Assembly: GCA_001560915.1 (NCBI GenBank)
Contig: CP014214.1
Coordinates: 1,302,001-1,366,000 of the forward strand
DNA: 64,000 bases
Origin: a methanogenic archaeon ISO4-H5
GTDB taxonomy: Archaea > Thermoplasmatota > Thermoplasmata > Methanomassiliicoccales > Methanomethylophilaceae
Reading direction: 5' to 3'
Shown here: positions 31,001 to 48,109 of the stretch, piece after piece
Layout: each line of letters opens with the position of its first letter
Numbering within the stretch: position 1 is the stretch's first letter
Made by a program: the position numbers and the translations under genes
The notes under the pieces: generated by a model
What the model was told of the DNA's origin: nothing
Database searches by the model: none
What the model saw: only the letters and a program-made list of their open reading frames with translations

Positions 31001-32500
31001 AGAGTCGGCGACCAGTTTGGAGAGCCTGCTCTTCAGATCATTCTCCTTTTCGCGACAGGAACGCAACTTAGCCTGTGCCGCAGATATGTCCTTCTTCGGT
31101 ACCTCCCCCTCAGAATCTTTCAGTCTTTCGAGCACGGCCTCCGCTTGAGAACTCTCTTTTGCTGCGAGGTCCGATTCGTTCCTGCGTGCGGCTATCAGCC
31201 CCTCGGCAGACTTGATCTCCTCTTCGAGAGCTTTTATCGCATTCGATATCCTGGCCCGCTCTTCTTCGATTCTCTTCTTGGCCTGGAGCTCATTCCTCCT
31301 GGTAACAGGGCTCCTCTGTGCCTCTACTTCCGCCTCGGCGAGCCCGGGGAGCTCTGTCGCGACGAAACTGTCGAGCCTGAGCTTTACTTCCTTACGCCTG
31401 GCCTCCTCGATATCCCTCTCGGCCTTCGCCTTGGTCCTGTTACGGGCATCCTCCAGCGCCCTGAGTTCCTCCTCGGGGGGAACGTCCTCTGCTTTGGATG
31501 GCGCGATGCGGCCGTCACGAATCTGCACGAGCTGATTCTTCCTCCGATCCTTATCGACGGGGATGGCAGGATCTACCAGAACATTGGGGGCCTTGGTGAA
31601 GGAGTCGAATTTCTTCTTGACATCGATCTTCGTAGACTCCTTGAGCTCTTCTGCCTCTTTCTTGTTGAATGAGATGTAGAGGTGCAGGAGGACGGATTCC
31701 CTCGCAGTAGGATATCTTGAAATGTCGGGTTTATCCATGACCCAGATAACCCCATTGCGACCGGTATCGAGATACTGTACCGGTTTCATTTCTTCCTGAT
31801 TGATTGTCCCCTCGACGCAGTATGCCCTGATGACATCGGGTACGCAATCTCTCAGGTCATAGCCCTTCGTCGACTCCGTATCGATGAGATACTTCCTCGA
31901 CTCCAGGTACTTCTCCCAGATTTCGAATGTCTTTTCCGCAGCCTCGGGATCCTTCACGACGTAGGATCCATTGAGATCGAGCATGAAGTCATCGGTCAGC
32001 GTGCTGTAGCGTTTCTGCTCGTCCGTGGGCCAGTCGGTGAACGACCCGTTGCATTGCCACCGGCCGCGGGGTTCGATCTGAAGGACGGGGGTGCAGTCGG
32101 TGACCTCAATCTCCACCGAATCGGGAATGGTTTTGGGATCCACGGTCAGGATTGCCTTGACCTTGAACTGCCGGTGGGAATCCCTGTCCCTCTCGAAGAT
32201 GTCCCCCATCAGGACTATGTCGGTCTTGCCGTACTTCTGAGGGAACCTTACTGCCACATTGCGGTAATACTGCCCCCTGGCCTTCTCCACCGTCTGTTTC
32301 TCTCTGACAAAATTCGGATAGGAGAAATACACGGTCTGCTCAGTTACCGCGAAATGGATGAGGAGGAAGTCCTCGAAAGACTGGTTCTTGAAATTCGCCG
32401 AGAGGATGGAGAACTGGTCCTCCAGACCTGTGGAGAAGACCGTGTTCCTCACCCCCTCGTACCGATTCGAGCCGAAATCCAGGCATAGATAGTTAGTCAT
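28037..32500 (-). CDS. Upf1-like superfamily 1 helicase with long coiled-coil insertions
   Basis: The 1487-residue protein has a novel N-terminal region (about 1-300), a coiled coil (about 310-560), then the SF1 core: GPPGTGKT near 700, a second long coiled coil inserted between motifs I and II (about 750-1090), DEVSK near 1155, GDHKQLPP, YRMHP, TVDDFQGDERDIIILS and INVAISRARR. This is the AAA_11/AAA_12 (Upf1/Dna2-type) set. Start at 32500 is chosen for a GGAG site nine bases upstream; upstream codons extend into the spacer after the MazF-like gene. It probably unwinds or translocates on RNA or DNA as the motor of this operon. Confidence 0.88.
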   Translation of the reverse strand: MTNYLCLDFGSNRYEGVRNTVFSTGLEDQFSILSANFKNQSFEDFLLIHFAVTEQTVYFSYPNFVREKQTVEKARGQYYRNVAVRFPQKYGKTDIVLMGDIFERDRDSHRQFKVKAILTVDPKTIPDSVEIEVTDCTPVLQIEPRGRWQCNGSFTDWPTDEQKRYSTLTDDFMLDLNGSYVVKDPEAAEKTFEIWEKYLESRKYLIDTESTKGYDLRDCVPDVIRAYCVEGTINQEEMKPVQYLDTGRNGVIWVMDKPDISRYPTARESVLLHLYISFNKKEAEELKESTKIDVKKKFDSFTKAPNVLVDPAIPVDKDRRKNQLVQIRDGRIAPSKAEDVPPEEELRALEDARNRTKAKAERDIEEARRKEVKLRLDSFVATELPGLAEAEVEAQRSPVTRRNELQAKKRIEEERARISNAIKALEEEIKSAEGLIAARRNESDLAAKESSQAEAVLERLKDSEGEVPKKDISAAQAKLRSCREKENDLKSRLSKLVADSENRSETIDKLRTEYQSAEARFDPGKDIERELGRIREEFISRMTLSKREDIESELGGPYAEKRVNAINEIDRDFDARVETARRDHTELRLHVYYELDIPDTDSPEQIIKRLAPRMKPELLLRKDFTGDWVLIDRQSRALNSLLEGYVMNPFLATALLSPDGKVKDTALDIDSMKYFTENLNNKQKEAVVKALSANGVFLLQGPPGTGKTQVIAEITAQLAVSGRKVLIASENHKAVDNAFSRLPKMPTIRPMRILTEDSRAKENPYSMARLLDNFYNNITMSLEKELRKYTDHQQYMSDLSESIEKLEDLAHRIDRYSVETEAVKERILDLQRNLDSEYNKKDKLETNNDTYRNKIMEKEEELSRILDIDDEKIIGRILDELQGIGFDASSYGMEPIKMIRLLRSTDSAELENEFIEMEFHQKLFDLRARKEIASASEIASINSEIEKYLSYNDLDEEETFRILRKLNPVPPQDKVLEAKGLIDSILDEEERRYRKFVDDLERKIDPTKLEIIQSQITRIKNEIEDARTDGAYRSLEKAQSEFETLVKDVLARLNLTITYSSPAEVIDKLMNVRDNLEREYRNNREGLDDRVDAYKRIIKYLRDEQVIDNDRDQYKSELLRTVNVFGMTCTTNDRFESDEEKIRLNELNIDVVIIDEVSKIPFVELLHPILYGKTVILVGDHKQLPPMFTERISEDEMEKGKYDPQWINPGDEKRYKKEYETSFFAKLFHETSPRNKIMLDVQYRMHPDIMDVDNVFYDNQLKAGINAKAREHYLNITGAYGRKIIGEDTHVVFVDCKGKEVQESGSTSFYNENEIEVVRKLLELINRGCRCDRNGKPLTGDVDRRHDTRLSVGVICPYADQAKRIRGKKVQKYRSFNDSGDEKFMVKTVDDFQGDERDIIILSMVRTTSKARFLMNYHRINVAISRARRLLIIVGNRSALEPMLVPMDDDIGAEKGAGRKLPIYRNMISTIERKNGILTEDTITGGE

Positions 32501-32540
32501 TGTAATTGCTCCGTTTGTTACTGTGAATTTTACGGCCTGT

Positions 32541-32876
32541 TCATGAGCAGACCCAGTCCTCATCCTCCGGGCTCAGATGGCCCAGGCACCTCTTGATCCG
32601 CCCGAGGGGAATCGTATGCTCCTCCATGTCCACGAAGGTCCTCTTCATGAGACCTGCTCCGAACGGGTCTGCAATCGCCCTCCTGTCCCGGACGGTCGAT
32701 TTCTGCGAGGTGCAGCTGCGGTATCTGACGAGTCCGTCTGAGTATCCCGTGACGACCACCGGCCTACTCTTGCAACCCGTGGCCCCGTCGAACGGGAGGT
32801 TCTCGGCCCAGCAGACATCGCCCCGCCTTACGGAAGAGACACGGCGATTGTACTTCCTCGTGTCCAGGTGGGTCAT
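32541..32876 (-). CDS. MazF/PemK-like (type II toxin fold) protein
   Basis: The 111-residue protein has the MazF/PemK core: RRGDVCWAENLPF, then GCKSRPVVVTGY, as in the RGD(I/V)W...RPV(L/V)V pattern of mRNA-interferase toxins. The C-terminal half (PFGAGLMKRTFVDM, IPLGRI) fits the remaining strands. Its ATG overlaps the TGA of a 71-residue gene upstream (ATGA), where an antitoxin would sit. The helicase gene follows after 40 nt. PemK-fold proteins also occur as nucleic-acid-binding parts of defence systems, so toxicity is not certain. Confidence 0.75.
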   Translation of the reverse strand: MTHLDTRKYNRRVSSVRRGDVCWAENLPFDGATGCKSRPVVVTGYSDGLVRYRSCTSQKSTVRDRRAIADPFGAGLMKRTFVDMEEHTIPLGRIKRCLGHLSPEDEDWVCS

Positions 32877-33088
32877 GAGACCACAATCCCGCTGACCGGG
32901 ATGAGAATCCCGTGATTTTCATGATGAACCGCTGTGTGACCCGTTGCGTAACGGTACTCCCGCCTGCCTTCGTGTCCGCCTTCGAATGTTCTACATCCGG
33001 GGATGAGTTCCACCGGATGTCCCGCCCCCGCCAAAACCGGGGACACAATCCTATGAGCCCTGCGGCCCATTACACAAATGTTCACCAT
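32873..33088 (-). CDS. 71-residue protein, first gene of the helicase operon (possible antitoxin position)
   Basis: The small protein is rich in His, Arg and Gly (GRRAHRIVSP, GHTAVHHENHG). I recognise no domain. It is supported by position: its stop overlaps the MazF-like start (ATGA), and its ATG lies about 48 nt downstream of the predicted transcription start. A longer frame to 33169 exists but begins upstream of that transcription start. It could be an antitoxin, but antitoxins usually have an acidic or DNA-binding N terminus, which is not seen. Confidence 0.55.
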   Translation of the reverse strand: MVNICVMGRRAHRIVSPVLAGAGHPVELIPGCRTFEGGHEGRREYRYATGHTAVHHENHGILIPVSGIVVS

Positions 33089-33333
33089 GTAATCACGTCC
33101 TGTTCCCCGCCCATCTGAGGCAGGGTGTCTTTCGACGGTTACATATCGTTTAACCTGATATATAAACATTCATTTGGTTGTAATTATTCACCATTTTCAT
33201 CACTTTTCTATTTTTTAACAAAAATAATTTTTTTATAATACAATATATTTTTTTGTAATTAAACAAAATACTTTTCAAATAAAATAATTTCTTTTAGAGT
33301 AAAAATAAATATTTAGAATTAAGATACTCACGC
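33089..33333. promoter_or_regulatory. Divergent AT-rich promoter region between helicase operon and CARF regulator
   Basis: On the minus strand TTTATATA (33159-33166) is the likely TATA box of the MazF-like/helicase operon. On the plus strand AATAAATATTTAGAATT near 33304-33320 fits the CARF gene, which would have a very short leader. Between them, 33180-33300 is almost pure A/T runs, far more AT-rich than other spacers in the window. The CARF-wHTH protein may bind here. Confidence 0.6.
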
Positions 33334-34014
33334 ATGGTACAGCATGTTCACATCTGCCCTGTCGGATTCTATCCTGAACCGATACTCGCAGCAGTCGGGG
33401 CCCTGCCCGCAGACAAATACTATTTCCTATACAATGAGCACGAGGAGAGCCTCAAATGCTTGGAAGCGGTGAAGACGGCCCTGGCGGCAATCGGGCAGAA
33501 CAACAACATGGAGATGGATATCGACCCGTTCGATTACAGCGCGGTCGTCGGAACCCTCATGAAGATTCACCATGAGGAGAGACATCAGGACCCCGATACC
33601 CATTTCTACATCAATTTCACCAACGGCACCAACATCGTCGCGGGAGCGTGCTGCAGCGTATCGTACTTCATCGGTGCCACGCTGTACTATGTGATGCGTG
33701 ACGAGCCTGGATCGAATCTTTCAAAGACAGAACGTGTGAGGATTATTAAGACGCCGCGCATCCCGGACATAGAGAAGATGAAACCATTCGCAAAGGACAT
33801 CCTATCCAAGATTTGCGAATCGAAACTGGGGATAGAGATGCAGGCGTTATCCCTGTACATGCAATCTTCGCCGCAAAAACTCAACCACCACATCAACTCA
33901 TTCATCAGCAGCGGGCTGGTGGAGAAAACCAAGGACGGACGCAAGGTCGTTCTCGTGGCCACGGAGCAGGGAAAACTCCTATACTCGTGGATTGCAGAGG
34001 ATGCGGGATTCTGA
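33334..34014 (+). CDS. CARF-domain winged-helix regulator (Csa3 / DUF6293-like), copy 1
   Basis: The 226-residue protein has a Rossmann-like N-terminal domain (HVHICPVGFYPEPIL start, and NFTNGTN near 93, the CARF ligand-loop signature) and a C-terminal winged helix (about 145-226). CARF domains bind cyclic oligonucleotides or related signals in type III CRISPR and other defence loci. No CRISPR array or Cas gene is in the window. It is divergent from the MazF-like/helicase operon and may control it. A paralogue lies at 39591-40292. Confidence 0.82.
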   Translation: MVQHVHICPVGFYPEPILAAVGALPADKYYFLYNEHEESLKCLEAVKTALAAIGQNNNMEMDIDPFDYSAVVGTLMKIHHEERHQDPDTHFYINFTNGTNIVAGACCSVSYFIGATLYYVMRDEPGSNLSKTERVRIIKTPRIPDIEKMKPFAKDILSKICESKLGIEMQALSLYMQSSPQKLNHHINSFISSGLVEKTKDGRKVVLVATEQGKLLYSWIAEDAGF

Positions 34015-35346: not shown

Positions 35347-36333
35347 TCATAACCTTACGAGCATTCCCTCATACAATTCGCTGTACTCCGCGACGAGGAA
35401 CTTGGGGGTGTTGGTGAATCCCGAAACCAGTCCGAGATCTTTCAGACGGATAATCTTGTTGATGCAGTACACATTGCCGTCCTCGTTGGGACGGATGACC
35501 AGCAGTTTGTAATCAGGACTGATGTGCACGAAATAGCGGTTATCCGTGAACGAGGGGCTGCGGAGGGAATCCTCTCCAATACGCTCCACCTCGAACTTCT
35601 GAGTAACCGGTTCTGCCCTCTTGATCTGAGGCGGTCCCCTCTGGGGATAGGGTGCGGGTTGGATTCCGGAGGAGATCTGAGGAGGCTGCATTTCAGTATC
35701 CGACGAGGAATGGGTTACGTATTCGTTCCCCGCAGGAGCTGCGACGGTCCCAGCGGGACTGTCGTCGGACCTCAGCGTTATGTAATCATCCGCGGCAACG
35801 GCCACCGGGTTGCGCTGGGTCTCCAGCTGAAACCTGGTCTGGCGGAGTTCGTTCTCCAGCTCATCCTTCTCCTTGTTTATGCGTTCCAGACTGTCCTGGT
35901 AATCCGCCTTGAGCTCCTCTGCGATCTTGTTCTGGAGTTCGGCCTTTATCCTGTTCTCGTAGTACGCCTTGATGTCGTTGCCGTGCTTCCTCCAGATGGT
36001 ACCCAGCACGTTCTCCCTAAGCTGTTCGTTGAAATTGAGTATGTCATTGAGGGTTATCTTGAAGAGGGGGGTGGCATAGGAGCAGTTGTAACCAGGGGCC
36101 AGCGTACAGATCCAGGTATCGCCGATAGCCACTTCGTATTGGAAGTCACGATCCACGAATACAATGCAGCCGTTGTTCGTCTGGGAGACAATGGTCGTCC
36201 CCTTGTTGTCGAGTCTGAACGTCAGGATGTGGAGTTTCTTCGAATATCCTTCCACCATATCTTCCGCCTCATCCTCTCCATCGAACCTCTGGCTGGCCTG
36301 CCAGTCGATGAGATCCATCTTCTGGTCACTCAT
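35347..36333 (-). CDS. Coiled-coil protein with shared C-terminal beta domain
   Basis: The 328-residue protein has a beta-rich N-terminal part (about 1-100), a coiled coil (about 105-175), a Pro/Ser-rich linker and a C-terminal domain of about 80 residues (FTDNRYFVHISP, YKLLVIRPNEDG). The C-terminal segment also forms the N terminus of the RloB fusion and is similar in pattern to the end of the protein at 36971-37936. No known family is recognised. The ATG lies within the stop region of the NYN RNase gene (8-nt overlap) with GGAGG 11 bases upstream. It is cotranscribed with that RNase. Confidence 0.7.
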   Translation of the reverse strand: MSDQKMDLIDWQASQRFDGEDEAEDMVEGYSKKLHILTFRLDNKGTTIVSQTNNGCIVFVDRDFQYEVAIGDTWICTLAPGYNCSYATPLFKITLNDILNFNEQLRENVLGTIWRKHGNDIKAYYENRIKAELQNKIAEELKADYQDSLERINKEKDELENELRQTRFQLETQRNPVAVAADDYITLRSDDSPAGTVAAPAGNEYVTHSSSDTEMQPPQISSGIQPAPYPQRGPPQIKRAEPVTQKFEVERIGEDSLRSPSFTDNRYFVHISPDYKLLVIRPNEDGNVYCINKIIRLKDLGLVSGFTNTPKFLVAEYSELYEGMLVRL

Positions 36334-36889
36334 GGTACGGCACACCTCCGTCGAGAGGGGGGCTGGACATCGCGATGAACGGGATCTCCTTGAGTTTGTG
36401 GTAGACGTCGGCGGTCATCGTGAGTTCCCTATCGTTGGATAAAAATTCCTCATAGGATGCAACTTCCACCCTCTTTCCTGCGGCCTGGACCTTCTGGATC
36501 ACAGGGATATAATCTCTGTCACCGCTGACCACAATCGCCACATCGTAATGGTTCATGAGAGCATGTTCCATCATCTCCACAGCCAGGGAGACGTCGACCT
36601 CCTTCTGCTCGTAATGGTCCTTTCTCCAAACCATGGCTTCCCGGGTGATCAGACGGAATCCGATGGAACGGAGCTTGTTGAGTGCGTTCTGCTCCTCTTG
36701 CTTCCTGTCCTCGCCGGCAATCTTACCATCGAAGATATACGCACCTACGAGATCCCTGTTCCCCACGAGTATCTGGGTCAGTCTGAAGATGTCGGCTACC
36801 ATCGCTCCGTCGTTGTATTTCGACATTAGGTTGCGATAATCGATGAAGACCATCACGCGACTGTAGCTGCGGTCTACGAACAGGGACAT
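36326..36889 (-). CDS. NYN-domain (LabA/DUF88-like) ribonuclease
   Basis: The 187-residue protein is a NYN domain, a PIN-like nuclease. Acidic site residues are visible: Asp17 in FIDYRN, Asp99 in KEVDVSLAVEMM, and Asp124/Asp126 in VVSGDRDYIPV. It should bind Mg and cut RNA. TATTATAC on the minus strand near 36910 gives a leaderless or nearly leaderless start. It is divergent from the coiled-coil gene at 36971 and overlaps the coiled-coil gene downstream. A HEPN, RloB and CARF-rich setting suggests RNA degradation in defence. Confidence 0.88.
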   Translation of the reverse strand: MSLFVDRSYSRVMVFIDYRNLMSKYNDGAMVADIFRLTQILVGNRDLVGAYIFDGKIAGEDRKQEEQNALNKLRSIGFRLITREAMVWRKDHYEQKEVDVSLAVEMMEHALMNHYDVAIVVSGDRDYIPVIQKVQAAGKRVEVASYEEFLSNDRELTMTADVYHKLKEIPFIAMSSPPLDGGVPYHE

Positions 36890-37958: not shown

Positions 37959-39554
37959 ATGGTCATCGATCCCGAAGTCTACCGCTTGATCAACAAACGC
38001 AAGGATGACCCCATCTTCATGGATTTTCTCCTGAACCATTATTCTCAAATCGTAGATTCCAAAGAAGGTATGGATAAGATCTGCTATGCCCAGGAAATCG
38101 CACGTGTCCTAGCCAGATTTGCAATCCAAGAACGGGTCCTTGCAGAACATAGTGACCATCCCATAGACGAAGAAAAATACAATCGTTATTACAGGACAGC
38201 GTTATACATTATCAGAAAAGGCATTGATATCGGCATGAAGATGGATTACGAGGCTAACGTGATTGGGGGAAAACCACTGAATGTCTCATATAACTATCAT
38301 ATGGGCTGGGCCTATGTACAGTACTCTATGATTCTTGCCGAAAACTATCGTTATTTCGCTGCTATGGGTGCGATTGTAACTGCAGAGAACTATCTAGTCA
38401 ACGATATATATAAAATAAAAGCTGGAAACCGGTTGCAAGGGGCCATAGATCTAATAAAAAGTCTGCCGGATTACGATGCGAGCACTCACGGTCCGTTGAC
38501 AGACTTGACGCCTGAACAGGCTGATCGGAGGATACTTCATCTATTTGATAGCCTAGGTGAGGCGGTCAATGAAAAGAAACTTCGCATTTTGGATGAGGTC
38601 TACAAGAAAGTCCCCGATAAATACCGCTTCATGTATGCGGTTTGTATAGATGGCCTCTTGGATTATTTCAAAAAAAGAAACGAAAAAGATTTCTTGAAAA
38701 ATTATGGTAAAGTTGTTTTAGATATTCAGGAGGAATTCCCAGAAATACCAAAGAAATTCCTCGATCTGCCTGATCTTTCTCAAAAGAATCTCGCACACGA
38801 TGAAACCCAAGAAGAAAAAAATTATGCCCTGTGGATTGATGGTTGCCACCTATTCTTAAGCTACCTGGATTTCGTTCCTGACATAGAAAAACGTCTCCGA
38901 TATGAGTGTGATGACCTGGTATTCGATTTCCAAATTCCGGATCTCAACAACATAATGGAGGATGTGGTAGAAACCTACTCCCATTGCAGGTTCCAGTTTT
39001 ACATGGCAACGCAATTCAATAGTCCGATTGAAAAACTGGCATACAGCTTCAGTCCATTTAACAAACGCATTTACAATCAAGAATTGCTTCTGGACACCTA
39101 TCCCCGCCTGTACTCGATTTTGGATAAAATATCCCATATAGTGATGAAAATCTGTGACATTACGATAATGCCCAACGACGACGGATATACTCCTCAACCC
39201 TCGTATAATCTAATTGTGCAGGAAATTCGTAAAAATTCAAACGGAAACCCATATCTCCTTACTCTCTGTGAGATATTCGACGAGATCAATCCTCGCTACA
39301 TTTACAGGACACAGAAGGACGTGCCATTCTATACGATGCTCCCTGGAGCTGAGCATATGGATAGGATTAGACATCATATAATCCACTCGGGGATCATGCT
39401 TGACGCTGATAGAAAGGTCAAAAAATCAAACAAGATTGTCTGCCATATCTCCGGAACAGATTTCGCAATGAGATGCTTAAATCTCATCACCCTTGTCAAG
39501 GAAGCTATCATGAACACCTGCATGGCAATAGAATACAGAAATCGCCAGGAATGA
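37959..39554 (+). CDS. HEPN protein of the LA2681 type
   Basis: The 531-residue protein is largely helical and AT-rich in coding, unlike the housekeeping genes. Near residues 471-476 it has RHHIIH, an Rx4H motif in a DRIRHHIIHSGIM setting typical of HEPN domains of the LA2681 class. The N-terminal two-thirds may form helical repeats. HEPN domains usually cleave RNA. I prefer the ATG at 37959 over TTG at 37950 because GGGAG lies ten bases upstream of the ATG. It likely shares a transcript with the coiled-coil gene before it. Confidence 0.68.
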   Translation: MVIDPEVYRLINKRKDDPIFMDFLLNHYSQIVDSKEGMDKICYAQEIARVLARFAIQERVLAEHSDHPIDEEKYNRYYRTALYIIRKGIDIGMKMDYEANVIGGKPLNVSYNYHMGWAYVQYSMILAENYRYFAAMGAIVTAENYLVNDIYKIKAGNRLQGAIDLIKSLPDYDASTHGPLTDLTPEQADRRILHLFDSLGEAVNEKKLRILDEVYKKVPDKYRFMYAVCIDGLLDYFKKRNEKDFLKNYGKVVLDIQEEFPEIPKKFLDLPDLSQKNLAHDETQEEKNYALWIDGCHLFLSYLDFVPDIEKRLRYECDDLVFDFQIPDLNNIMEDVVETYSHCRFQFYMATQFNSPIEKLAYSFSPFNKRIYNQELLLDTYPRLYSILDKISHIVMKICDITIMPNDDGYTPQPSYNLIVQEIRKNSNGNPYLLTLCEIFDEINPRYIYRTQKDVPFYTMLPGAEHMDRIRHHIIHSGIMLDADRKVKKSNKIVCHISGTDFAMRCLNLITLVKEAIMNTCMAIEYRNRQE

Positions 39555-39590: not shown

Positions 39591-40292
39591 ATGATGCATG
39601 TCCATATCGCCTACGCGGGAAAAGTTCCGGACCCCACTCTGAATACAATCAAAGCAGTACCGGATGCCATCGACAGGGTAGTTCTGCTTTACAGCGTAAC
39701 GGACGATGGTGTTTTCGAACGTACCGCAGAGGAACTATCGGGCAAATTGGGAAATATGGGATACCTCTGTGAATCCAGAATCATCAACTCCTTCGATTTC
39801 CTGAATATCGTGGACACGATCTATGATGTTTTCGAGGAATACAAGAAACAGGATCGTAATGTAAAATTTTCCGTGGACATAACCAACGGAACTAATCTCA
39901 CTGCAGCGGCTGCATGTAATACGGCATTCTTCATGAATTCCGACGTTTATTACATGGGAGATAAACGCAGATTCCCCGAGAAATCATTAAGTGAACTCCT
40001 GATCGCCATCCCCTCTCCGAAAATCCCGGATGTGAAACGTCTGGGCGATTTATCTCTAGATATGCTGAGGTTCATCGCCGAGGAACAGGATCTCGGTCAC
40101 GAGGTATGCAACGTGGATGTCGCCAGGAAATTCGATATGTCCCCTCAGGCGATTATGTATCACATAAACAGACTCAGGGACGCAGGGGTCATCGATTTGG
40201 AAGATGCCTATACTCCCAAAGGAAAGATCGATAAACGCAGGAAAGCGATAAAGATCAGGCGTGAGGGAAGATTCGTCCTCAGATGGACTTGA
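39591..40292 (+). CDS. CARF-domain winged-helix regulator (Csa3 / DUF6293-like), copy 2
   Basis: The 233-residue protein matches copy 1 (33334-34014) in layout: N-terminal Rossmann-like CARF domain (MHVHIAYAG start, DITNGTN near 98) and C-terminal wHTH with SPQAIMYHINRLRDAG, ending in a basic segment. GTTATATCAT about 25 nt upstream gives a nearly leaderless start. It precedes the kinase and viperin genes and may regulate them. Two such sensors in 7 kb without CRISPR suggest a nucleotide signal from another source; this is inference. Confidence 0.82.
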   Translation: MMHVHIAYAGKVPDPTLNTIKAVPDAIDRVVLLYSVTDDGVFERTAEELSGKLGNMGYLCESRIINSFDFLNIVDTIYDVFEEYKKQDRNVKFSVDITNGTNLTAAAACNTAFFMNSDVYYMGDKRRFPEKSLSELLIAIPSPKIPDVKRLGDLSLDMLRFIAEEQDLGHEVCNVDVARKFDMSPQAIMYHINRLRDAGVIDLEDAYTPKGKIDKRRKAIKIRREGRFVLRWT

Positions 40293-40383
40293 TTTAATTT
40301 CCGTAATTATCAACTTCATCCATACTACTGTGCCAGATGACTGTTATCGTGTTTATTGTGAAACACAAATACTAAAAGTTATA

Positions 40384-40479
40384 TTTTTATTATAAATGAT
40401 TTTTACTTTATAATTCCAAAACGAACTTACCCTCATGAACACAGAAACCGCCCTGGTCAAAAAGTGCAGGTCTGCTAAC
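40384..40479 (+). repeat. Promoter plus 15-codon leader shared with the viperin gene (copy A)
   Basis: This 96-bp block (51 nt of promoter and the first 15 codons of the kinase gene) aligns without gaps to 42325-42420. I count about 71 of 96 positions equal. Both copies have a TTTATAAT box 28 nt before the ATG (40407-40414 here) and both proteins start MNTET..V.K.RSAN. The shared block suggests the two genes are turned on together. Confidence 0.8.
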
Positions 40480-41133
40480 AGGAAATACACCATCGGCGTA
40501 TTCGGAATCTCAAGGAGCGGAAAGGATTCGGCCATTGACGTCTTCGTCGACATAGCCCGGGAGAACGGTTACGAATTCACCCATATGTCCCCCATTGGGA
40601 TGATCCGTGAGAGACTGACGGGCAGAAGACTCAAGACGATGCCGGAATCGGAGAAGAGGCAACTGGTGGAAGAGGTGCGGGCTGAGATCAGAAAGGTCTC
40701 GGAGACCAATAACATCATCGTTGACGAACACTACTGCTTCCCCCACGATTTCGGAGGAGTTGTGTTGGAGGACGGATATTATGATGAGAAACTGCCCTAT
40801 GACATCATGAGCATTCCTAACTCTCCCACGAACTACGAAGTCGTGCTCCCTAGATTCGGCACGCAGTTCTATGATCTCGTGGCTGTGATGAAGATAGACC
40901 CAGACGCCATAATCGAACGTATGAGGAGATCTGAAGGATGCAAGAGGAACACAGTCGCAACCAGAGAGGATATCATACATTGGCAGCGGGCAGAGATGAT
41001 AGGGGTATACCATGATGCCCTGGGTCGCGGCATATTCCAATCTGAGGACTATATGAAAAATGCCGAGGCCATTTGGGGAGCTTTCGAGGAACTTGTCAAC
41101 GAAGACCGTTCACCCCAGCCCAATCACTTGTAA
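40435..41133 (+). CDS. P-loop nucleotide kinase-like protein
   Basis: The 232-residue protein has a 15-residue leader, then GVFGISRSGKDS (P-loop, about 21-32) and a DEHYCF segment near 104 that fits a Walker B/acceptor region. It resembles adenylate/cytidylate kinase-type folds but no exact family is recognised. It is a paralogue of the amber-interrupted kinase at 43532-44176. Nucleotide kinases are often found beside prokaryotic viperins, where they may phosphorylate the product or precursor. Its 3' end overlaps the ApeA-like gene's end by 10 nt (convergent). Confidence 0.75.
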   Translation: MNTETALVKKCRSANRKYTIGVFGISRSGKDSAIDVFVDIARENGYEFTHMSPIGMIRERLTGRRLKTMPESEKRQLVEEVRAEIRKVSETNNIIVDEHYCFPHDFGGVVLEDGYYDEKLPYDIMSIPNSPTNYEVVLPRFGTQFYDLVAVMKIDPDAIIERMRRSEGCKRNTVATREDIIHWQRAEMIGVYHDALGRGIFQSEDYMKNAEAIWGAFEELVNEDRSPQPNHL

Positions 41134-42269
41134 ACATAGGGCTTGTCTGCCTGGAAGTTATGTGGTCTGAAAATTCTCTCCATCAAACCATCACTCACAG
41201 GATTCCATCTGACGGTGTCAACCTTGTATGCGGCCTTATCCTCATCGCAGTATTCCAGTTTGTTGACGATATCCTCTATTTCCCTGTCCTTCACATAGAA
41301 CAGCTTCAGAATCAGGCATCTAGTAAGGTCGAATGCCATCGGTATGCATTCCTTGTCAAATACTTCATCCTTGCTTTTGTGGACGAGTAAACTGCGCTGG
41401 TAGTAAAGATATCCCACTTTCTTGTAGAGATTGGCCTGCTTTTTCCCTTTTACTACTCCGCCGTTACGTATCATACGAGAAACACTCTGCTTAATCCTCT
41501 CAGTTACACGGTTCCTGTTCTTTGACCATATCTCCGGGAATTGCTGAGCGAACAATTCCCATATCCCCGATATTGCTATGAATGCGGTTTCCACATCGTT
41601 GCATCTGTACGCATTCCTGTATAGATCGAGCATCCTTTTCGTTAGCATATCCTTGCTGCTCGGTTCCGGCCCGTAATTCAGCGGATAGAACTGGGTGTAC
41701 CACTCACGGAACTCCGAATAGAACTTTTGAAAATCCTTCTTCTCGGATTCACTCAGCGTGAACACGGGCAGAAATCTCCATAACGCATAGTTCGTCTCGC
41801 ATTGGTACATATCGTTTACGGCCACACCTCCTTCCGGAAGTACTCCGATTCCGAATCCTGCCCGGTTCGTTTTGAAGAGTCTGATGGCATCGATGAGACA
41901 CCTCTCCTCGTCCTCCCAGCTTTTATCGGTGTCCATTCTGAAGTATCTGAACTGCTGATACTCCGAACAGCATGTCCCATCGTCCTTCTTCTTCACGACG
42001 AATTCGCAGTAGATCGTACGGGCCATGGAGAGTGGAGCGAAAAGATGGTGGAAGAAATCATAGAGCGTGTCCACCAAAATCTCATCCCTGCGTTCGTTGA
42101 CTATCTTACCGTCAGGACCGCTGGCTCTGTTGTAGATGTAGGACATTCCGGTTTCCATGATCGGCTTCATGTCATACGGCGAAACGGTACCGTATTCGAA
42201 CGGCGGCAGATCCACGTCTAGAAGAGAATCGTCCATTCCGCTGCACAGTACGATGGCCGTGGTCTGCAT
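41124..42269 (-). CDS. ApeA-like HEPN protein
   Basis: The 381-residue protein has an N-terminal part of unknown fold and a C-terminal HEPN domain with RSLLVH (about 292-297), in the YYQRSLLVHKS setting typical of ApeA-type HEPN proteins (Rx4H). Such proteins act in anti-phage defence by degrading tRNA or other RNA. GTGATATAACC on the minus strand about 25 nt upstream fits a leaderless start at 42269. It lies between the kinase and viperin genes in the opposite direction, with the viperin promoter on its 5' side. Confidence 0.75.
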   Translation of the reverse strand: MQTTAIVLCSGMDDSLLDVDLPPFEYGTVSPYDMKPIMETGMSYIYNRASGPDGKIVNERRDEILVDTLYDFFHHLFAPLSMARTIYCEFVVKKKDDGTCCSEYQQFRYFRMDTDKSWEDEERCLIDAIRLFKTNRAGFGIGVLPEGGVAVNDMYQCETNYALWRFLPVFTLSESEKKDFQKFYSEFREWYTQFYPLNYGPEPSSKDMLTKRMLDLYRNAYRCNDVETAFIAISGIWELFAQQFPEIWSKNRNRVTERIKQSVSRMIRNGGVVKGKKQANLYKKVGYLYYQRSLLVHKSKDEVFDKECIPMAFDLTRCLILKLFYVKDREIEDIVNKLEYCDEDKAAYKVDTVRWNPVSDGLMERIFRPHNFQADKPYVYK

Positions 42270-42324: not shown

Positions 42325-42420
42325 TTTTTATTATCAAAGAATTTTGCTTTATAATCTGAACACCAAATACCTATCATGAACACAGAAACTACCTCAGTCA
42401 GGAAATTCAGGTCCGCAAAC
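42325..42420 (+). repeat. Promoter plus 15-codon leader shared with the kinase gene (copy B)
   Basis: Second copy of the block at 40384-40479, ending in codon 15 of the viperin gene. TTTATAAT at 42348-42355 is the TATA box, 28 nt before the ATG, as in copy A. Confidence 0.8.
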
Positions 42421-43206
42421 ATCCACATCTACGGAAAATGCAACTACCGCTGCGAGCACTGTTTCGACAGGTGCCTCACCAAGAACTACATGAGGCCGTC
42501 CGACTGGGTTGACACCCTGACCTTCCTGAAGGAATACGGGGTGGAGAAGATCAACCTGGCCGGCGGGGAACCCACCCTCTATCCCTTCCTGGACCAGATG
42601 TGCTACCTGGTCAAGGGCATGGGCTTCAAGCTCTCCATCGTCAGCAACGGCTCCCTCATCACCGAGGACTGGATGGCTAGGATGGAGGGAGTCGTCGACT
42701 GGATCGGTCTCTCCATCGACTCCATCGATGAGGCGGACGAGATCCAGATCGGAAGGGGCAGGGGAGGCCACCTGGAGAACATCGTACAGGTCGCCGATAT
42801 GGCCCACCGGCACGGCATCAAGGTAAAGCTCAACATCACCGTGGTTAGGAGGAGTTGGATGAAGGACTTCAGACCCTTCATCGAGAAGGTTAGGCCAGAA
42901 CGCGTCAAGTGCTTCAGGGCCCTCACCCTGAAGAACGCAAACGACGACGTCCCCGACACCTGGTCCATCACAGACAAACAGTTCGAAGACTTCAGGCGCA
43001 GGCACGAGGACATCGGCTGCATCGTCTTCGAGGACAACGAGGACATGGTCTCCTCCTACGTGATGTTCGACCCCATGGGCAGATGGATGGTCGACAGCGG
43101 GTACGAGAAGAGGTTCATCTCCTTCGAGGTCCTCAGGAGGGAAGGGCTCGACCGGGAAGTGGATGTCGAGAAGTACTTCGGCCGCAACGCCGTCTACGAA
43201 TGGTGA
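42376..43206 (+). CDS. Prokaryotic viperin (pVip), radical SAM antiviral enzyme
   Basis: The 276-residue protein has the viperin pattern: CNYRCEHCF (Cys22, Cys26, Cys29 for the 4Fe-4S cluster), LAGGEPTLYP, LSIVSNGSLI, a NITVV segment, and the viperin C-terminal part (CFRALTLKNAN, RRHEDIGCIVFEDNEDM, SSYVMFDPMGRW) that separates viperins from MoaA-type proteins. Viperins convert CTP, GTP or UTP to 3'-deoxy-3',4'-didehydro nucleotides that stop viral RNA polymerases. The base used here cannot be read. Two P-loop kinase genes flank it, a common pVip setting. The first 15 residues match the leader of the upstream kinase. Confidence 0.9.
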   Translation: MNTETTSVRKFRSANIHIYGKCNYRCEHCFDRCLTKNYMRPSDWVDTLTFLKEYGVEKINLAGGEPTLYPFLDQMCYLVKGMGFKLSIVSNGSLITEDWMARMEGVVDWIGLSIDSIDEADEIQIGRGRGGHLENIVQVADMAHRHGIKVKLNITVVRRSWMKDFRPFIEKVRPERVKCFRALTLKNANDDVPDTWSITDKQFEDFRRRHEDIGCIVFEDNEDMVSSYVMFDPMGRWMVDSGYEKRFISFEVLRREGLDREVDVEKYFGRNAVYEW

Positions 43207-43526
43207 TTGGCTTGAAGTACAAACCGTACAAACCTGCCGAGGAGAACCTCGCCGTCGGTGACGTGAGAAAGTGCACGTTCAACGGAGTAGGGGTCGTCGA
43301 GACGTTCTATGTTGTTGTGATGGCGGTTTACCCCGGCCACATCGCAGTCAGGAAACTCCACAAGGACAACTGGGGAGCTACCCGGTATCTGATAAGGGAC
43401 GTGGCCCCGACCGGTCTCGAATACGCCATGTTCGTGGATACCAAGGATACAGAAATGCAGGAACAGATGGTCGGCCGCAAAACGGGAAGGATCTCGAAGA
43501 CAGACGTGAGGAACATAAGGAAGTGA
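43200..43526 (+). CDS. Small protein coupled to viperin
   Basis: The 108-residue protein begins with an ATG that overlaps the viperin stop region (ATGGTGA), so it is probably translated by coupling. The sequence (VGDVRKCTFNGVGVVETFYVVVMAVYPGH, ending in basic residues) suggests a small beta-rich domain. I do not recognise a family. It is followed by the amber-interrupted kinase after five bases, with an AAGTGA-type site. Its place between viperin and kinase suggests it belongs to the same antiviral unit. Confidence 0.65.
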   Translation: MVIGLKYKPYKPAEENLAVGDVRKCTFNGVGVVETFYVVVMAVYPGHIAVRKLHKDNWGATRYLIRDVAPTGLEYAMFVDTKDTEMQEQMVGRKTGRISKTDVRNIRK

Positions 43527-43531
43527 TTGAA

Positions 43532-44176
43532 ATGACAGGTCAGAACATTAGTACGCATTACAGGATAGGATTATTCGGAGTGTCGAGGAGCGGCAAGAAC
43601 TACACCATCGACGACTTCATCGGACTGGCGAAAGACAACGGGATAGAATTCGTCCACATGTCCCCCATGGACATGATCCGTGCTCGTCTCGGCAGCCGCA
43701 GACTGCGTGATATGCCAGACGATGAAAAACGTGCACTCGTGACAGAGGTCAGGGAAGAGATCGACCGCATCGCCAAGGACCACAACATCATCGTGGACGA
43801 ACACTTCTGCTACCCCTCCACATTCGGCGGGAAGAAGCTGGAAAACGGATACTACGACGAGAAGCTCCCGCACGACATCCTCCATGATATGAGGTACAAA
43901 GTGGATTACGAGGTGGTCTTCCCCCGTTACGAATCCTAGAAATACGATCTGCTCGCAGTGATGAGTCTGGACCCGGAAATCATCGTGGAAAGGTCCAGAA
44001 CCTCCGAGGGGGCGAAATACAATCCCTACGTCACCGCTGAGGAGATTGCAGAGTGGCAGAAGGCTGAGATAAGCGGGATCGCCAGGGAAAGCCAGGTCCC
44101 CGTCTTCCTGATAACCGACCCGCGTAAATCGGGTATGTTGCTGTGGAAGGCGGCCAGGACCGCCTTGTTCCACTGA
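43532..44176 (+). CDS. P-loop kinase paralogue with in-frame amber codon (possible pyrrolysine) at 43937
   Basis: Read through one TAG, the frame encodes 214 residues. P-loop GLFGVSRSGKN (about 13-23) and VDEHFCYP match the kinase at 40435-41133. The TAG is codon 136 and aligns with a Gln in the paralogue (PRFGTQFYDL against PRYES-TAG-KYDL). Similarity continues after it (LLAVMSLDPEIIVERSRTSEG region), with no frameshift. CAG to TAG is a single transition. In an organism with pyrrolysine decoding the protein may be full length with Pyl at 136; otherwise it is a nonsense pseudogene. A GGAAGTGA site precedes the ATG. Confidence 0.8.
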
Positions 44177-45286: not shown

Positions 45287-48109
45287 ATGACCTCTATCCC
45301 TCCGGCCGCCTTCCCGCTGAACGACATCTCCGCGGGCAGGATGGACCTGATTTATAACGATACGGAATCCAACAGGAAGGTTCTCACCACCCTCCAGAAG
45401 GAGATCTCCGACTGCGACAGATTCGATTTCTCCGTCGCGTTCATCACCAGGAGCGGCATGGCCTGCATCAATCAGCTGCTGGACAACACCAGGGATAAGG
45501 TCAAAGGCAGGATCATCACCACCGACTACCTCAACTTCAGCGAACCTGCCGCTCTCAGACAGCTCCTGAGGTTCTCAAACATTGAGGTTAGGATCTACTC
45601 CCGCCAGAACTTCCACACCAAAGGATACATCTTCCACAAGGGGAAGGAGACCAGTCTGATGGTGGGCAGTTCTAACATTACCCAGGATGCCCTGAACGTC
45701 AACAAGGAATGGAACATCTGGTATTCCACCACCGACTCCGATAACCTCTTCCTGGGGACCACAGTCAGCGAGTTCGAATCCATGTGGAAGCAGTCCGTCC
45801 CCCTCACCGAGGAATGGATCCAGGAGTACGAGCCGAGGCATCTCCGTTCCAAGATCGAAAGGCAGACCGAGCTGCAGGCCCGCAGGAACGACCCCGTGGT
45901 GATCACCCCCAACGAGATGCAGAAGGATGCTCTGGAGAACCTCTGCAAACTCAGGAACTCCGGTGCCGACAAGGCTTTGCTCATCTCAGCCACCGGAACC
46001 GGAAAAACCTATCTGTCAGCGTTCGATGTGAAGGAATCACAATCCAAGAAGGTGCTCTTTCTGGTTCACCGTGAACAGATTCTCGACGATGCCCGTGAGA
46101 GTTACAAGGATATCCTCGGTAACGGAATCAGGACCGGAAAGATCACCGGAATCTCCAAGGATTTCGATGCGGACTACATCTTCTCCACCATCCAAACGAT
46201 GTCCAAACCTGACATCCTGGCACATTTCAAACCAGACCATTTCGACTACATCATATGCGACGAGGCACACCACGCAGTTGCCAAACAATACAACAGCATC
46301 GTCGACTACTTCAGACCCAAGTTCATGCTCGGCATGACCGCCACTCCCGAGAGAATGGATTCCGGCGACGTTTTCAAGAGGTTCAACCACAACATCGCCT
46401 ACGAAATCCGTCTCCAGGACGCCCTCGAAAAGAACATGCTCTGTCCCTTCCACTATTACGGCATTACCGACATCAGCGTGGACGGGAGGCCCATCGAGGA
46501 CGATGAGGACTTCAACTCCCTGGTCTCCGAGGAGAGGATCAAACACATCATCGAGAAGATGGAGTTCTACGGTCACTCCGGCGACAGGGTAAAGGGCCTG
46601 ATCTTCTGCAGATCCATCGAGGAAGGCAGGGAATTATCCGTAAAACTCAACGAACACGGTCTCAGGACCCAATTCGTCTGCGGAAAGGATGATGCGGCTA
46701 CCAGGGAAAAGGCGGTTAACCTTCTCGAACAGGAGGACAAATCCACTGGATTGGATTACATAATTACCGTGGATATCTTCAACGAGGGTGTGGACATCAA
46801 ATCCGTCAACCAGATCGTGATGCTGAGGCCCACCCAGTCTTCCATCATTTTCATACAGCAGCTCGGACGCGGACTCAGGAAGAGGGCCCTGAACGGAGAG
46901 CTCAAGGAATACCTCGTGGTCATCGACTTCATCGGGAACTACAAGAACAACTTCATGATCCCCATCGCTCTCTCCGGCGAGCGTTCCGCCAACAAGGAGC
47001 ATCTCCGCAGGTATCTCATGAAGCAGACCATTCCCGGCTGCAGCACGGTGGACTTCGATCTCATCTCCAAGAAAAGGATCTACGATTCCATCAACCGCTC
47101 CACCGTGACCGACCTCATCAAGGGACAGTACTCCTCCCTGGTAAAGATGCTCGGCTACGAACCGACCATGACCCAGCTTGTCAAATCCTCGAGCATGGAC
47201 CCGATGGACATCATAAATCACTACGACAACTTCAACAACTTCAAGAGGGTCCTGAAACTGACCCATCACAACCTCGGGAAGGGGGAGGAACTCACCCTCG
47301 ATTACCTCTCATCCACCATACTGAACGGCAAAAGGCCCCACGAATTGGAGATTCTGAAGAACGTCATCTCCCACGGTTGCGTCGATTTTTCTGTAGTTAA
47401 AAATGAACTCGCGGACAAATACGGTATCGACTGTGACGAAGATTCGCTTCAATGTGCTATCGATGTTCTCGACAGCGATTACTCCAAGAGACTGAAATCA
47501 CCTCTCATCGAAATCAAAGAGGGTAAGGCTTACTGCACCCAGTATTTGAAGGATCTCCTCAGCAGAGATTACACGAAAGAATACGTCCTCGACATCGTCG
47601 ACTGCGGCCTCGAGATCTTCGACAGGAGATACAAAGAAGGATTCGACGGTTCCCTAAAACTCTACGAAAGGTACTCCAGGAAAGACGTCTGCCGTCTGCT
47701 GAACCTCGGAACCGAAGGAATCTCGAGCACAATCTACGGTTACGGAACCTACCGCGGCAAGTGTCCTATCTTCGTCACCTACAACAAGGACGCGAACATC
47801 AGCAAGAGCATCCAGTACAAAGAGGAGTTCACCGACAGACAGCACTTCAGCTGGATGACCCGCAGTAATAGGAACATCCGGAGCAACGATGTCGCCTGTG
47901 TTCTCGATTCCAACATAGAGAAATACTTCTTCGTACAGAAAGGAGACGATGACAGTTCCGATTTCTACTATCTAGGAAAGGTCACACCCCAAGATCCCAG
48001 GGAGACCACCATCGAGGGCAACAAGGGCGAGGCACTCCCTATCGTGAACATCAAATTGGTCCTCGAACAGCCAGTTGACGAGGGCATATACGAGTATCTC
48101 ACCAACTGA
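45287..48109 (+). CDS. PLD-like domain fused to SF2 DEAD/DEAH helicase (DUF3427 type)
   Basis: The 940-residue protein has an N-terminal phospholipase-D-type nuclease domain (FHTKGYIF near 108 and VGSSN near 127), an SF2 helicase core (SATGTGKT about 233-240, CDEAHHA about 325, MTATPERMD, QQLGRGLRK), and a C-terminal DUF3427-like region (about 640-940). This layout is known in bacterial and archaeal genomes and is linked to DNA processing or phage defence, though its role is unsettled. The remnant-rich spacer upstream (45083-45286) has no clear promoter. Later codons are more AT-rich (about 47380-47700). Confidence 0.88.
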   Translation: MTSIPPAAFPLNDISAGRMDLIYNDTESNRKVLTTLQKEISDCDRFDFSVAFITRSGMACINQLLDNTRDKVKGRIITTDYLNFSEPAALRQLLRFSNIEVRIYSRQNFHTKGYIFHKGKETSLMVGSSNITQDALNVNKEWNIWYSTTDSDNLFLGTTVSEFESMWKQSVPLTEEWIQEYEPRHLRSKIERQTELQARRNDPVVITPNEMQKDALENLCKLRNSGADKALLISATGTGKTYLSAFDVKESQSKKVLFLVHREQILDDARESYKDILGNGIRTGKITGISKDFDADYIFSTIQTMSKPDILAHFKPDHFDYIICDEAHHAVAKQYNSIVDYFRPKFMLGMTATPERMDSGDVFKRFNHNIAYEIRLQDALEKNMLCPFHYYGITDISVDGRPIEDDEDFNSLVSEERIKHIIEKMEFYGHSGDRVKGLIFCRSIEEGRELSVKLNEHGLRTQFVCGKDDAATREKAVNLLEQEDKSTGLDYIITVDIFNEGVDIKSVNQIVMLRPTQSSIIFIQQLGRGLRKRALNGELKEYLVVIDFIGNYKNNFMIPIALSGERSANKEHLRRYLMKQTIPGCSTVDFDLISKKRIYDSINRSTVTDLIKGQYSSLVKMLGYEPTMTQLVKSSSMDPMDIINHYDNFNNFKRVLKLTHHNLGKGEELTLDYLSSTILNGKRPHELEILKNVISHGCVDFSVVKNELADKYGIDCDEDSLQCAIDVLDSDYSKRLKSPLIEIKEGKAYCTQYLKDLLSRDYTKEYVLDIVDCGLEIFDRRYKEGFDGSLKLYERYSRKDVCRLLNLGTEGISSTIYGYGTYRGKCPIFVTYNKDANISKSIQYKEEFTDRQHFSWMTRSNRNIRSNDVACVLDSNIEKYFFVQKGDDDSSDFYYLGKVTPQDPRETTIEGNKGEALPIVNIKLVLEQPVDEGIYEYLTN

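What the first reader, a model, noticed from the sequence alone, without database searches (positions are those of the whole stretch)
42376..44176. Archaeal viperin locus with two kinase paralogues and a coupled small protein
The gene at 42376 has viperin C-terminal motifs, not only the radical SAM core. Nucleotide kinases beside pVips can make triphosphate forms of the chain terminator. Having two paralogues plus a 108-residue coupled protein of unknown family is unusual and may define a specific subtype.
Basis: partly seen in the sequence, partly recalled or inferred. Interest (0 to 1): 0.7.

Follow-up and report, generated by a model that had tools for sequence, protein, structure and literature searches.

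The report
Archaeal viperin module with CARF regulator
A gut archaeon carries a genuine copy of the antiviral enzyme viperin in a larger defence cluster with a CARF-type switch gene, two adenylate-kinase-like genes (one interrupted by a codon this organism probably reads as the rare amino acid pyrrolysine) and a decayed relative of a toxin family.

Summary
The viperin is real. It passes NCBIfam's viperin equivalog cut-off (236.7 vs 180), and a tree groups it with all viperins against MoaA (100/100). (1) Kinase 2, and by homology kinase 1, has an archaeal adenylate-kinase fold (best Z 16.0); PADLOC's VakA does not match them. (2) Kinase 2 has an in-frame UAG at codon 136. The genome encodes PylS, B, C and D, UAG is almost unused as a stop in the stretch examined, and selection continues past it, so pyrrolysine is the likelier reading. 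(3) Two kinases occur only in this genome, 1 of 8 viperin-bearing genomes of the order. Kinase 1 carries a copy of the viperin promoter and first 15 codons; that promoter block occurs just twice genome-wide. (4) The 108-residue protein is a diverged PemK/MazF-like protein (hhalign 93.6%) lacking the family's KxRP and CTS motifs. (5) The constant partner is a CARF gene, mostly CARF-wHTH: 7 of 8 viperin loci in the order, plus one elsewhere in the phylum. Ligand, enzymology and antiviral activity are untested.

The parts
42376..43206 (+). viperin (prokaryotic viperin, radical SAM), 276 aa
   Evidence: NF038283 236.7 bits vs cut-off 180; PADLOC pVip 4.9e-70; profile of six relatives matches solved viperins at 3e-52 to 2e-58; tree 100/100 with viperins against MoaA
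43200..43526 (+). 108-aa translation-coupled protein, diverged PemK/MazF-like, lacks KxRP and CTS motifs
   Evidence: no Pfam family alone; profile A2 finds PemK-like proteins; hhalign A2 vs A7 93.6%, E 2.1e-7; PemK-like HMM hits it at 2e-6
43532..44176 (+). kinase 2, archaeal adenylate-kinase fold, interrupted by in-frame UAG at codon 136
   Evidence: read-through model pLDDT 73; best PDB match archaeal adenylate kinase Z 16.0, rmsd 3.2, 174 residues; purifying selection on both sides of the UAG
43937..43939 (+). in-frame TAG (UAG), probable pyrrolysine codon; CTA (Leu) in G034, CAG (Gln) in kinase 1
   Evidence: sequence, codon alignment; pylS/B/C/D over cut-off
40435..41133 (+). kinase 1, intact paralogue, 232 aa; first 15 codons resemble those of viperin
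   Evidence: 49% identical to kinase 2; 5' end 84 of 114 bases identical to the viperin 5' end
40379..40415 (+). conserved promoter block upstream of kinase 1
   Evidence: 0 mismatches to the 37-base consensus, none in 100 shuffles; 32-base core found only twice in the genome
42320..42356 (+). conserved promoter block upstream of viperin
   Evidence: 3 mismatches; conserved in five viperin promoters and kinase 1
39591..40292 (+). CARF-wHTH protein, 233 aa
   Evidence: PADLOC CARF3 PDLC01866 1.1e-83; Pfam HTH_24 over cut-off
37959..39554 (+). HEPN_LA2681 protein
   Evidence: PF18733 2.7e-44, 151 bits vs 27; next to CARF in all five rumen-clade viperin loci and in none of 25 other CARF loci
41124..42269 (-). 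381-aa protein with a conserved R-x4-H (HEPN-like) motif; family unassigned
   Evidence: no Pfam, PADLOC or NCBIfam match; motif conserved in G000, G034 and G112; orthologues seen only in these three loci

Best explanation
This is a viperin-centred antiviral island of a rumen Methanomassiliicoccales archaeon, probably strain ISO4-H5. On infection a small ligand, probably a nucleotide signal, is sensed by the CARF-wHTH protein. That protein then changes transcription from a roughly 40-bp promoter block shared by the viperin operon and kinase 1. Viperin converts a ribonucleotide into a 3'-deoxy-3',4'-didehydro chain terminator. The adenylate-kinase-fold kinases keep its substrate or product phosphorylated. 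Kinase 2 is made full length by reading UAG as pyrrolysine. Kinase 1 is an older paralogue that acquired a copy of the viperin promoter and start, so it would be made together with viperin. The 108-aa protein is a PemK/MazF-fold derivative without the expected catalytic residues, made in step with viperin and most likely an RNA- or partner-binding adaptor. The HEPN_LA2681 protein is a likely RNase arm. Shown: gene identities, shared promoter, conserved neighbourhood, selection across the UAG, pyl genes. Inferred: ligand, direction of regulation, pyrrolysine insertion, every enzyme activity, antiviral effect.
For: Viperin identity. Archaeal adenylate kinases fill the 13 best rows of the fold comparison of kinase 2 (Z 14.1-16.0), then one designed nanoparticle at 13.2, then other kinases at 11.3 and below. 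Kinase 1 and viperin share 84 of 114 bases across promoter and start; the 32-base block occurs twice in 1.94 Mb, control 0, and is kept in five viperin promoters. A CARF gene lies within 2.1 kb of viperin in 7 of 8 order loci (the order's eight are window, L011, L046, L048, L049, L012, L045, L047) and in L198. The five best matches of the CARF family PDLC01866 over 147 genomes are exactly the five rumen-clade viperin loci. PylS, PylB, PylC and PylD over cut-offs, a sub-threshold PYLIS_1 match beside them, TAG ending 1 of 53 called window genes (kinase 2 itself) and 1 of 13 in the next 19 kb (a nitrogenase-like gene that also continues past its TAG). dN/dS 0.129 before and 0.109 after the UAG. 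ISO4-H5 paper: 46 genes with in-frame amber (PMC5011839, passages).
Against: No ligand or ligand synthase is known for this CARF, and no Csm1-type Cas10 is in the genome (Cmr2-type not tested). The CARF is not constant: absent near G075 and near most viperins outside the order. Kinase and small protein are absent or broken in 4-5 of the 8 order loci, so they are dispensable, and the UAG could equally be early decay. The UAG site is variable (Leu, Gln), giving no sign that pyrrolysine is needed there. The synonymous rate is near saturation, so dN/dS is rough. ARAGORN found no tRNA-Pyl. The AlphaFold model of the 108-aa protein is uninformative (pLDDT 42).
Confidence: 0.5

Rival explanations
1. 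Kinase 2 is a fresh pseudogene: UAG ends translation at residue 135, kinase 1 under the copied viperin promoter has replaced it, and the locus now works with one kinase.
For: Kinases are lost or broken repeatedly in the clade: fragment in G112, none in G091 and G092. The UAG stands at a variable position. Kinase 1 is intact and has the viperin promoter. A truncated product would lack strand E140-144 and everything after it in the model.
Against: The organism encodes the pyl enzymes, TAG is nearly absent as a stop in the 83 kb examined, no frameshift or second stop exists in the 215 codons, and dN/dS does not rise after the UAG.
Confidence: 0.3
2. An ordinary viperin with a phosphorylating partner (viperin plus nucleotide kinase, as in known pVip-kinase loci), sitting by chance in a defence island; CARF, HEPN and PemK-like genes are unrelated neighbours.
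For: Defence genes of other kinds lie on both sides (type IV restriction-like 45287-48109, NYN 36326-36889). Kinases beside viperins are known; PADLOC's VakA matches the kinases beside Nostoc and Pseudoalteromonas viperins.
Against: CARF-viperin adjacency in 7 of 8 order loci, in at least three separate lineages (rumen clade, G051, G017), and in L198 in another part of the phylum. Order-wide I count only 47 CARF rows at 40 bits or more in 147 genomes. HEPN_LA2681 accompanies CARF only in the five rumen-clade viperin loci (5 of 30 CARF loci).
Confidence: 0.2
3. The 108-aa protein is an active mRNA interferase (toxin) whose partner or brake is viperin or the kinase, giving an abortive arm.
For: Its positional counterpart in G051 passes PF02452 (34.3 vs 23.1) and keeps the KxRP motif. 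HicA and RelE toxins are reported beside viperins (PMC10865869, passages).
Against: All three proteins of the rumen clade lack the KxRP and CTS motifs conserved in the related PemK-like set; no antitoxin gene is seen.
Confidence: 0.15

Closest known systems
Prokaryotic viperin (pVip), Bernheim et al. 2021 (recalled; not held)
   Same: Viperin core, C-terminal region, phylogeny, kinase neighbour in some loci
   Different: CARF-wHTH and HEPN_LA2681 partners, adenylate-kinase-fold kinases not matched by VakA, PemK-like coupled protein
VakA kinase beside viperins (PADLOC PDLC02911; 'viperin-associated kinase' is my reading of the name)
   Same: Nucleotide-kinase gene next to viperin (Nostoc 182 bits, Pseudoalteromonas 227 bits)
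   Different: Window kinases give no VakA match at E up to 1 and fold closest to archaeal adenylate kinase
HicA/RelE-viperin operons (PMC10865869, passages)
   Same: A small protein of a toxin family coupled to viperin
   Different: PemK/MazF-like family, and apparently without the catalytic motifs in the window clade
CARF-wHTH regulators Csa3 / CARF3 (PADLOC PDLC01866, PDLC02909)
   Same: CARF domain plus winged helix next to a defence operon
   Different: Coupled to viperin rather than cas genes. PDLC02909 'Csa3' is numbered between the pVip models and VakA, which hints that curators had already seen Csa3 near viperins; the library text does not say
Amber (pyrrolysine) genes of ISO4-H5 (PMC5011839, passages)
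   Same: In-frame UAG in a genome with the pyl genes; a Cas3 and an adenylate kinase AR505_1784 are listed there
   Different: The viperin-linked kinase is not named in the passages I saw; by position it is a different gene from AR505_1784 (inferred)

Membership tests
Viperin | CX3CX2C radical SAM cluster motif and GGEP | tested here: met
   CNYRCEHC and GGEP in the window protein; the cysteines and GGEP are invariant in the six aligned relatives
Viperin | Curated viperin model over its cut-off | tested here: met
   NF038283 236.7 vs 180; the other model, TIGR04278 viperin, is far below its own cut-off (133.9 vs 450), which I take to be tuned to eukaryotic viperins
Viperin | Branching with viperins, not MoaA | tested here: met
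   100/100; an earlier tree with poor outgroups was uninformative
Viperin | ddh-nucleotide synthase activity | not testable with these tools
   needs enzyme assay
VakA (kinase beside viperin) | Match to PADLOC PDLC02911 | tested here: not met
   0 PADLOC families at E up to 1 for both kinases; positive controls 182 and 227 bits
Archaeal adenylate kinase (AdkA) | Fold | tested here: met
   kinase 2 model: best matches Z 16.0, 15.9, 15.8; Foldseek 7.6e-9; kinase 1 not modelled, by homology only
Archaeal adenylate kinase (AdkA) | Curated sequence model over cut-off | tested here: not met
   NF003122 18.3 and 14.8 bits vs 155; so a distant relative by fold, not filed as AdkA
PemK/MazF | Profile relation to PemK-like proteins | tested here: met
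   hhalign 93.6%, E 2.1e-7 over 69 columns; reciprocal HMM hits. Of the six A7-type or G051 proteins scanned, only L181 and L052 pass PF02452
PemK/MazF | KxRP and (C)TS motifs | tested here: not met
   absent in window, G034 and G112 proteins; that these are catalytic is recalled for MazF
CARF-wHTH regulator | CARF domain plus winged helix | tested here: met
   PDLC01866 278 bits; HTH_24 24.7 vs 21.9; HFX_2341_N 29.5 vs 30, just below
Pyrrolysine-containing protein | Genome encodes Pyl synthesis and charging | tested here: met
   PylS, B, C, D over cut-offs; tRNA-Pyl not found by ARAGORN
Pyrrolysine-containing protein | Read-through of this UAG | not testable with these tools
   needs mass spectrometry

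The most novel reading that the evidence does not exclude
A viperin subtype in which a CARF-wHTH sensor places viperin and a dedicated adenylate-kinase-fold kinase in one two-promoter regulon, tying nucleotide second-messenger sensing to chain-terminator synthesis, with a second kinase that contains pyrrolysine and a MazF-fold protein repurposed as a non-catalytic partner.
Probability: 0.27. Interest if true: 0.78.

Novelty: new variant of a known kind. Interest (0 to 1): 0.56.

Why it matters
How prokaryotic viperins are switched on is, as far as I recall, open; linkage to a CARF sensor and a shared, unusually conserved promoter block makes that question directly testable. A viperin-linked kinase of an adenylate-kinase fold suggests that nucleotide kinases were recruited to viperin more than once. 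If the UAG is read, an immune gene would depend on pyrrolysine, whose known roles are mainly in methylamine methyltransferases (PMC3941956, passages).

Tried and rejected
Considered and dropped: (a) viperin being a MoaA-like or other radical SAM enzyme: rejected by score gap (NF038283 236.7 vs MoaA 69.3 bits) and tree. (b) Kinases of viral origin: no relative in viral contigs by two peptide patterns and none in phages by tblastn; both limited. (c) Small protein in viral contigs: none. (d) Fold of the small protein: AlphaFold pLDDT 42, not used. (e) PDB sequence search for the small protein: 0 hits; for kinase: adenylate kinase 6pjw at E 0.11, too weak alone. (f) First tree with badly chosen outgroups: uninformative, long branches. 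(g) The promoter block upstream of the second CARF gene (33334): alignment score 50, below the best of 500 shuffles of the kinase 1 sequence (59), so not claimed. (h) The G112 kinase fragment looked like a fusion to an integrase tail by eye; Pfam gave no match, so only 'fragment' is claimed. (i) PF02901 search was irrelevant to the question. (j) HEPN assignment of the 381-aa gene rests on one R-x4-H motif; PDB search gave no match below E 0.3.

Limits: gene calls in relatives come from my own hexamer script. Viperin neighbourhoods were read in detail for 8 order loci, 7 further loci of the phylum sample taken (of 8 there outside the order; G152, below the cut-off, was not fetched), and part of the 80 loci, most of which are not viperins. 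My CARF HMM was run on 29 loci, some of them doubtful viperins (L062-L068) and L059 close to L058; L060 is the same locus as L200 and was left out. G051's CARF gene is cut by the contig end, so only its C-terminal part is seen. Papers: Bernheim 2021 and Shomar 2024 are not held; statements on them are recalled. For a CARF-viperin link I searched: 17, 2 and 1 papers; I saw listings for all of these, and passages only of PMC12988326, where Csa3 occurs once, in a reference title. Absence from print is therefore not claimed.

Full report
Setting. The window is positions 1302001-1366000 of a single-contig genome of 1,937,883 bases. Size, pyl genes and content agree with the rumen archaeon ISO4-H5 (Methanomassiliicoccales), whose paper gives about 1.9 Mb and 54% G+C (PMC5011839, passages). 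The strain name is my inference.

Viperin. The 276-aa protein at 42376-43206 scores 236.7 bits on NCBIfam's viperin equivalog (cut-off 180), against 69.3 for MoaA, and 4.9e-70 on PADLOC pVip. A profile of six order members finds nine distinct viperin or viperin-like chains of solved structures at 3e-52 to 2e-58, with MoaA at about 3e-12 (four of the nine are deposited only as 'radical SAM core domain-containing protein'). A tree of 23 viperins (four annotated as such in public plasmids) and four annotated MoaA separates the two at 100/100. The window protein sits in a 100/98 clade that includes the annotated Methanomethylovorans hollandica viperin.

Kinases. Kinase 1 (40435-41133) and kinase 2 (43532-44176) are 49% identical. 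Neither reaches a Pfam or NCBIfam cut-off, and PADLOC gives no match. A read-through model of kinase 2 has pLDDT 73. Its 13 best rows by Z are all archaeal adenylate kinases (16.0 to 14.1), followed by one designed nanoparticle (13.2) and other kinases at 11.3 and below. Kinase 1 was not modelled. PADLOC's VakA matches the kinases next to Nostoc and Pseudoalteromonas viperins (182 and 227 bits) but not these. With a profile, only this genome (two), G034 (one) and partial matches in G082, G135 and G137 appear in 389 genomes of the phylum; G051, found, was evidently not in that sample. The family is very narrow.

The UAG. Codon 136 of kinase 2 is TAG. The reading frame continues to a TGA at the expected length. 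In G034 the codon is CTA, in kinase 1 CAG. PylS, PylB, PylC and PylD are over their cut-offs, and a sub-threshold PYLIS_1 match (42.1 vs 70 bits) lies next to pylS; ARAGORN found no tRNA-Pyl, a tRNA that is unusual in this order (imperfect anticodon stem, PMC3941956 abstract). Among genes of at least 90 aa called by my script, stops were TGA 45, TAA 7, TAG 1 in the window and TGA 11, TAA 1, TAG 1 in the next 19 kb; the two TAG cases are kinase 2 and a nitrogenase-like gene that also reads on past its TAG. The ISO4-H5 paper lists a nitrogenase gene among 46 amber genes; that it is the same gene is my inference. Kinase 2 against G034 gives dN/dS 0.129 over 135 codons before and 0.109 over 78 after the UAG; dS is near saturation. 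Truncation would remove the fold from strand E140-144 on. I put read-through at about 0.65 and decay at about 0.3. The site is variable, so pyrrolysine is probably tolerated rather than required.

Kinase 1 and the shared promoter. The region from about -70 to +45 of kinase 1 aligns to that of viperin with 84 of 114 bases identical. Its score, 108, compares with at most 50 for the other called window genes and 59 for the best of 500 local shuffles. It includes the first 15 codons (MNTETALVKKCRSAN vs MNTETTSVRKFRSAN). A block of about 40 bases is conserved upstream of viperin in G000, G034, G112, G091 and G092 and upstream of kinase 1. The 32-base core occurs exactly twice in the genome with up to 3 mismatches, control 0. 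Kinase 1 thus appears to have acquired the viperin promoter and start.

The 108-aa protein. Alone it matches no family over a cut-off. A profile of the G000, G034 and G112 proteins finds further small proteins in other genomes. Six of these, with one found in the window (32541-32876, -), align as a PemK-like set of seven with conserved KxRP and CTS motifs. hhalign relates the two sets at 93.6%, E 2.1e-7, and HMMs hit reciprocally. Of six proteins scanned, two (L181 and the G051 protein) pass PF02452, two are below it and two give no PemK match. The three rumen-clade proteins lack both motifs. At the same place in G051 stands a protein that passes PF02452 (34.3 vs 23.1) and is followed by a homologous kinase, so the order viperin, PemK-like, kinase is shared.

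Neighbourhood. Over 147 genomes of the order, 8 have a viperin above the cut-off. G000: HEPN_LA2681, CARF-wHTH, kinase 1, 381-aa gene (-), viperin, small protein, kinase 2. G034: the same without kinase 1. G112: the same without kinase 1, HEPN cut by the contig start, kinase a fragment. G091 and G092: HEPN, CARF, viperin only, with nine CRISPR-like repeats about 130 bases after the G091 viperin. G051: partial CARF-wHTH divergent from viperin in the sense of lying upstream of it on the same strand, then PemK-like, kinase. G017: CARF-wHTH divergent, viperin, a CARF protein, a MkoA-like helicase. G075: no CARF. So 7 of 8 have a CARF gene within 2.1 kb. Of 7 further phylum loci that I fetched, one (L198) has a CARF-wHTH 149 bases from the viperin match and a second CARF protein. 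The loci that I read in other lineages (Thermococcus, Poseidoniales, Gagatemarchaeum, Myxococcota and others) show none within 5 kb above 14 bits (rows at 28.5 bits 5.9 kb away in L058, and 13.3 and 12.3 bits in L064 and L067). Across the order, matches of 40 bits or more to the same CARF family number 47 by my count of the table, and the best five are the five rumen-clade viperin loci. HEPN_LA2681 lies beside CARF in those five of 30 CARF loci and in none of the other 25 (flanks of about 1.5 kb).

Mechanism and its limits. CARF domains bind small nucleotide signals in known systems (general knowledge). With a winged helix, the simplest reading is a ligand-controlled regulator of the viperin promoter block. 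What makes the ligand is unknown: no Csm1-type Cas10 is in the genome, and Cmr2-type was not tested. The kinases may supply the viperin substrate or phosphorylate its product; nothing here decides. The PemK-like protein has probably lost RNase activity and may bind RNA or partners.

Novelty. Viperin, viperin plus kinase, and viperin plus small toxin (HicA, RelE; PMC10865869, passages) are known kinds. The combination with CARF-wHTH, HEPN_LA2681, an adenylate-kinase-fold kinase, a copied promoter and a probable pyrrolysine codon is, in my reading, a new variant. PADLOC numbers a 'Csa3' model between its viperin models and VakA, and that model matches the G017 and G051 CARF proteins best, so a Csa3 link may already be known to curators.

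Noticed in passing
window 28037-34014: A second module: MkoA-like helicase (28037-32563, -), PemK-like protein (32541-32876, -) and a second CARF-wHTH gene (33334-34014, +). CARF beside a PemK-like gene recurs without viperin in L139 and L180.
   Followed up: partly
L045 2119-7092 and L198 3593-7043: In two distant lineages a viperin is flanked by two CARF genes and a MkoA-like helicase, resembling the viperin-free MkoA/CARF module of the window.
   Followed up: partly
L049 10480-11053: Nine CRISPR-like repeats (constant part about 32 bases, spacing 66-68) begin about 130 bases after the viperin of G091, in place of the small protein and kinase.
   Followed up: no
L014 8160-9608 (-): Nitrogenase-like gene with an in-frame TAG and continuing frame, useful as a second pyrrolysine candidate in the same region.
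   Followed up: partly
window 45287-48109: Large helicase/PLD-like protein matching PADLOC type IV methyl-directed restriction at 2.2e-212.
   Followed up: no
L204 260-3743: Pseudoalteromonas viperin between a VakA-type kinase and a DUF4145/SEC-C protein; DUF4145 as a HEPN-type domain is recalled, so HEPN-like partners of viperin may be wider.
   Followed up: no
L013 9665-10729: G082 ORF with a P-loop kinase-like N-terminal part sharing an 'EGHFSFP...GG' motif with the viperin kinases and a long C-terminal part that looks HAD-like by eye; possible source family of the kinases.
   Followed up: no
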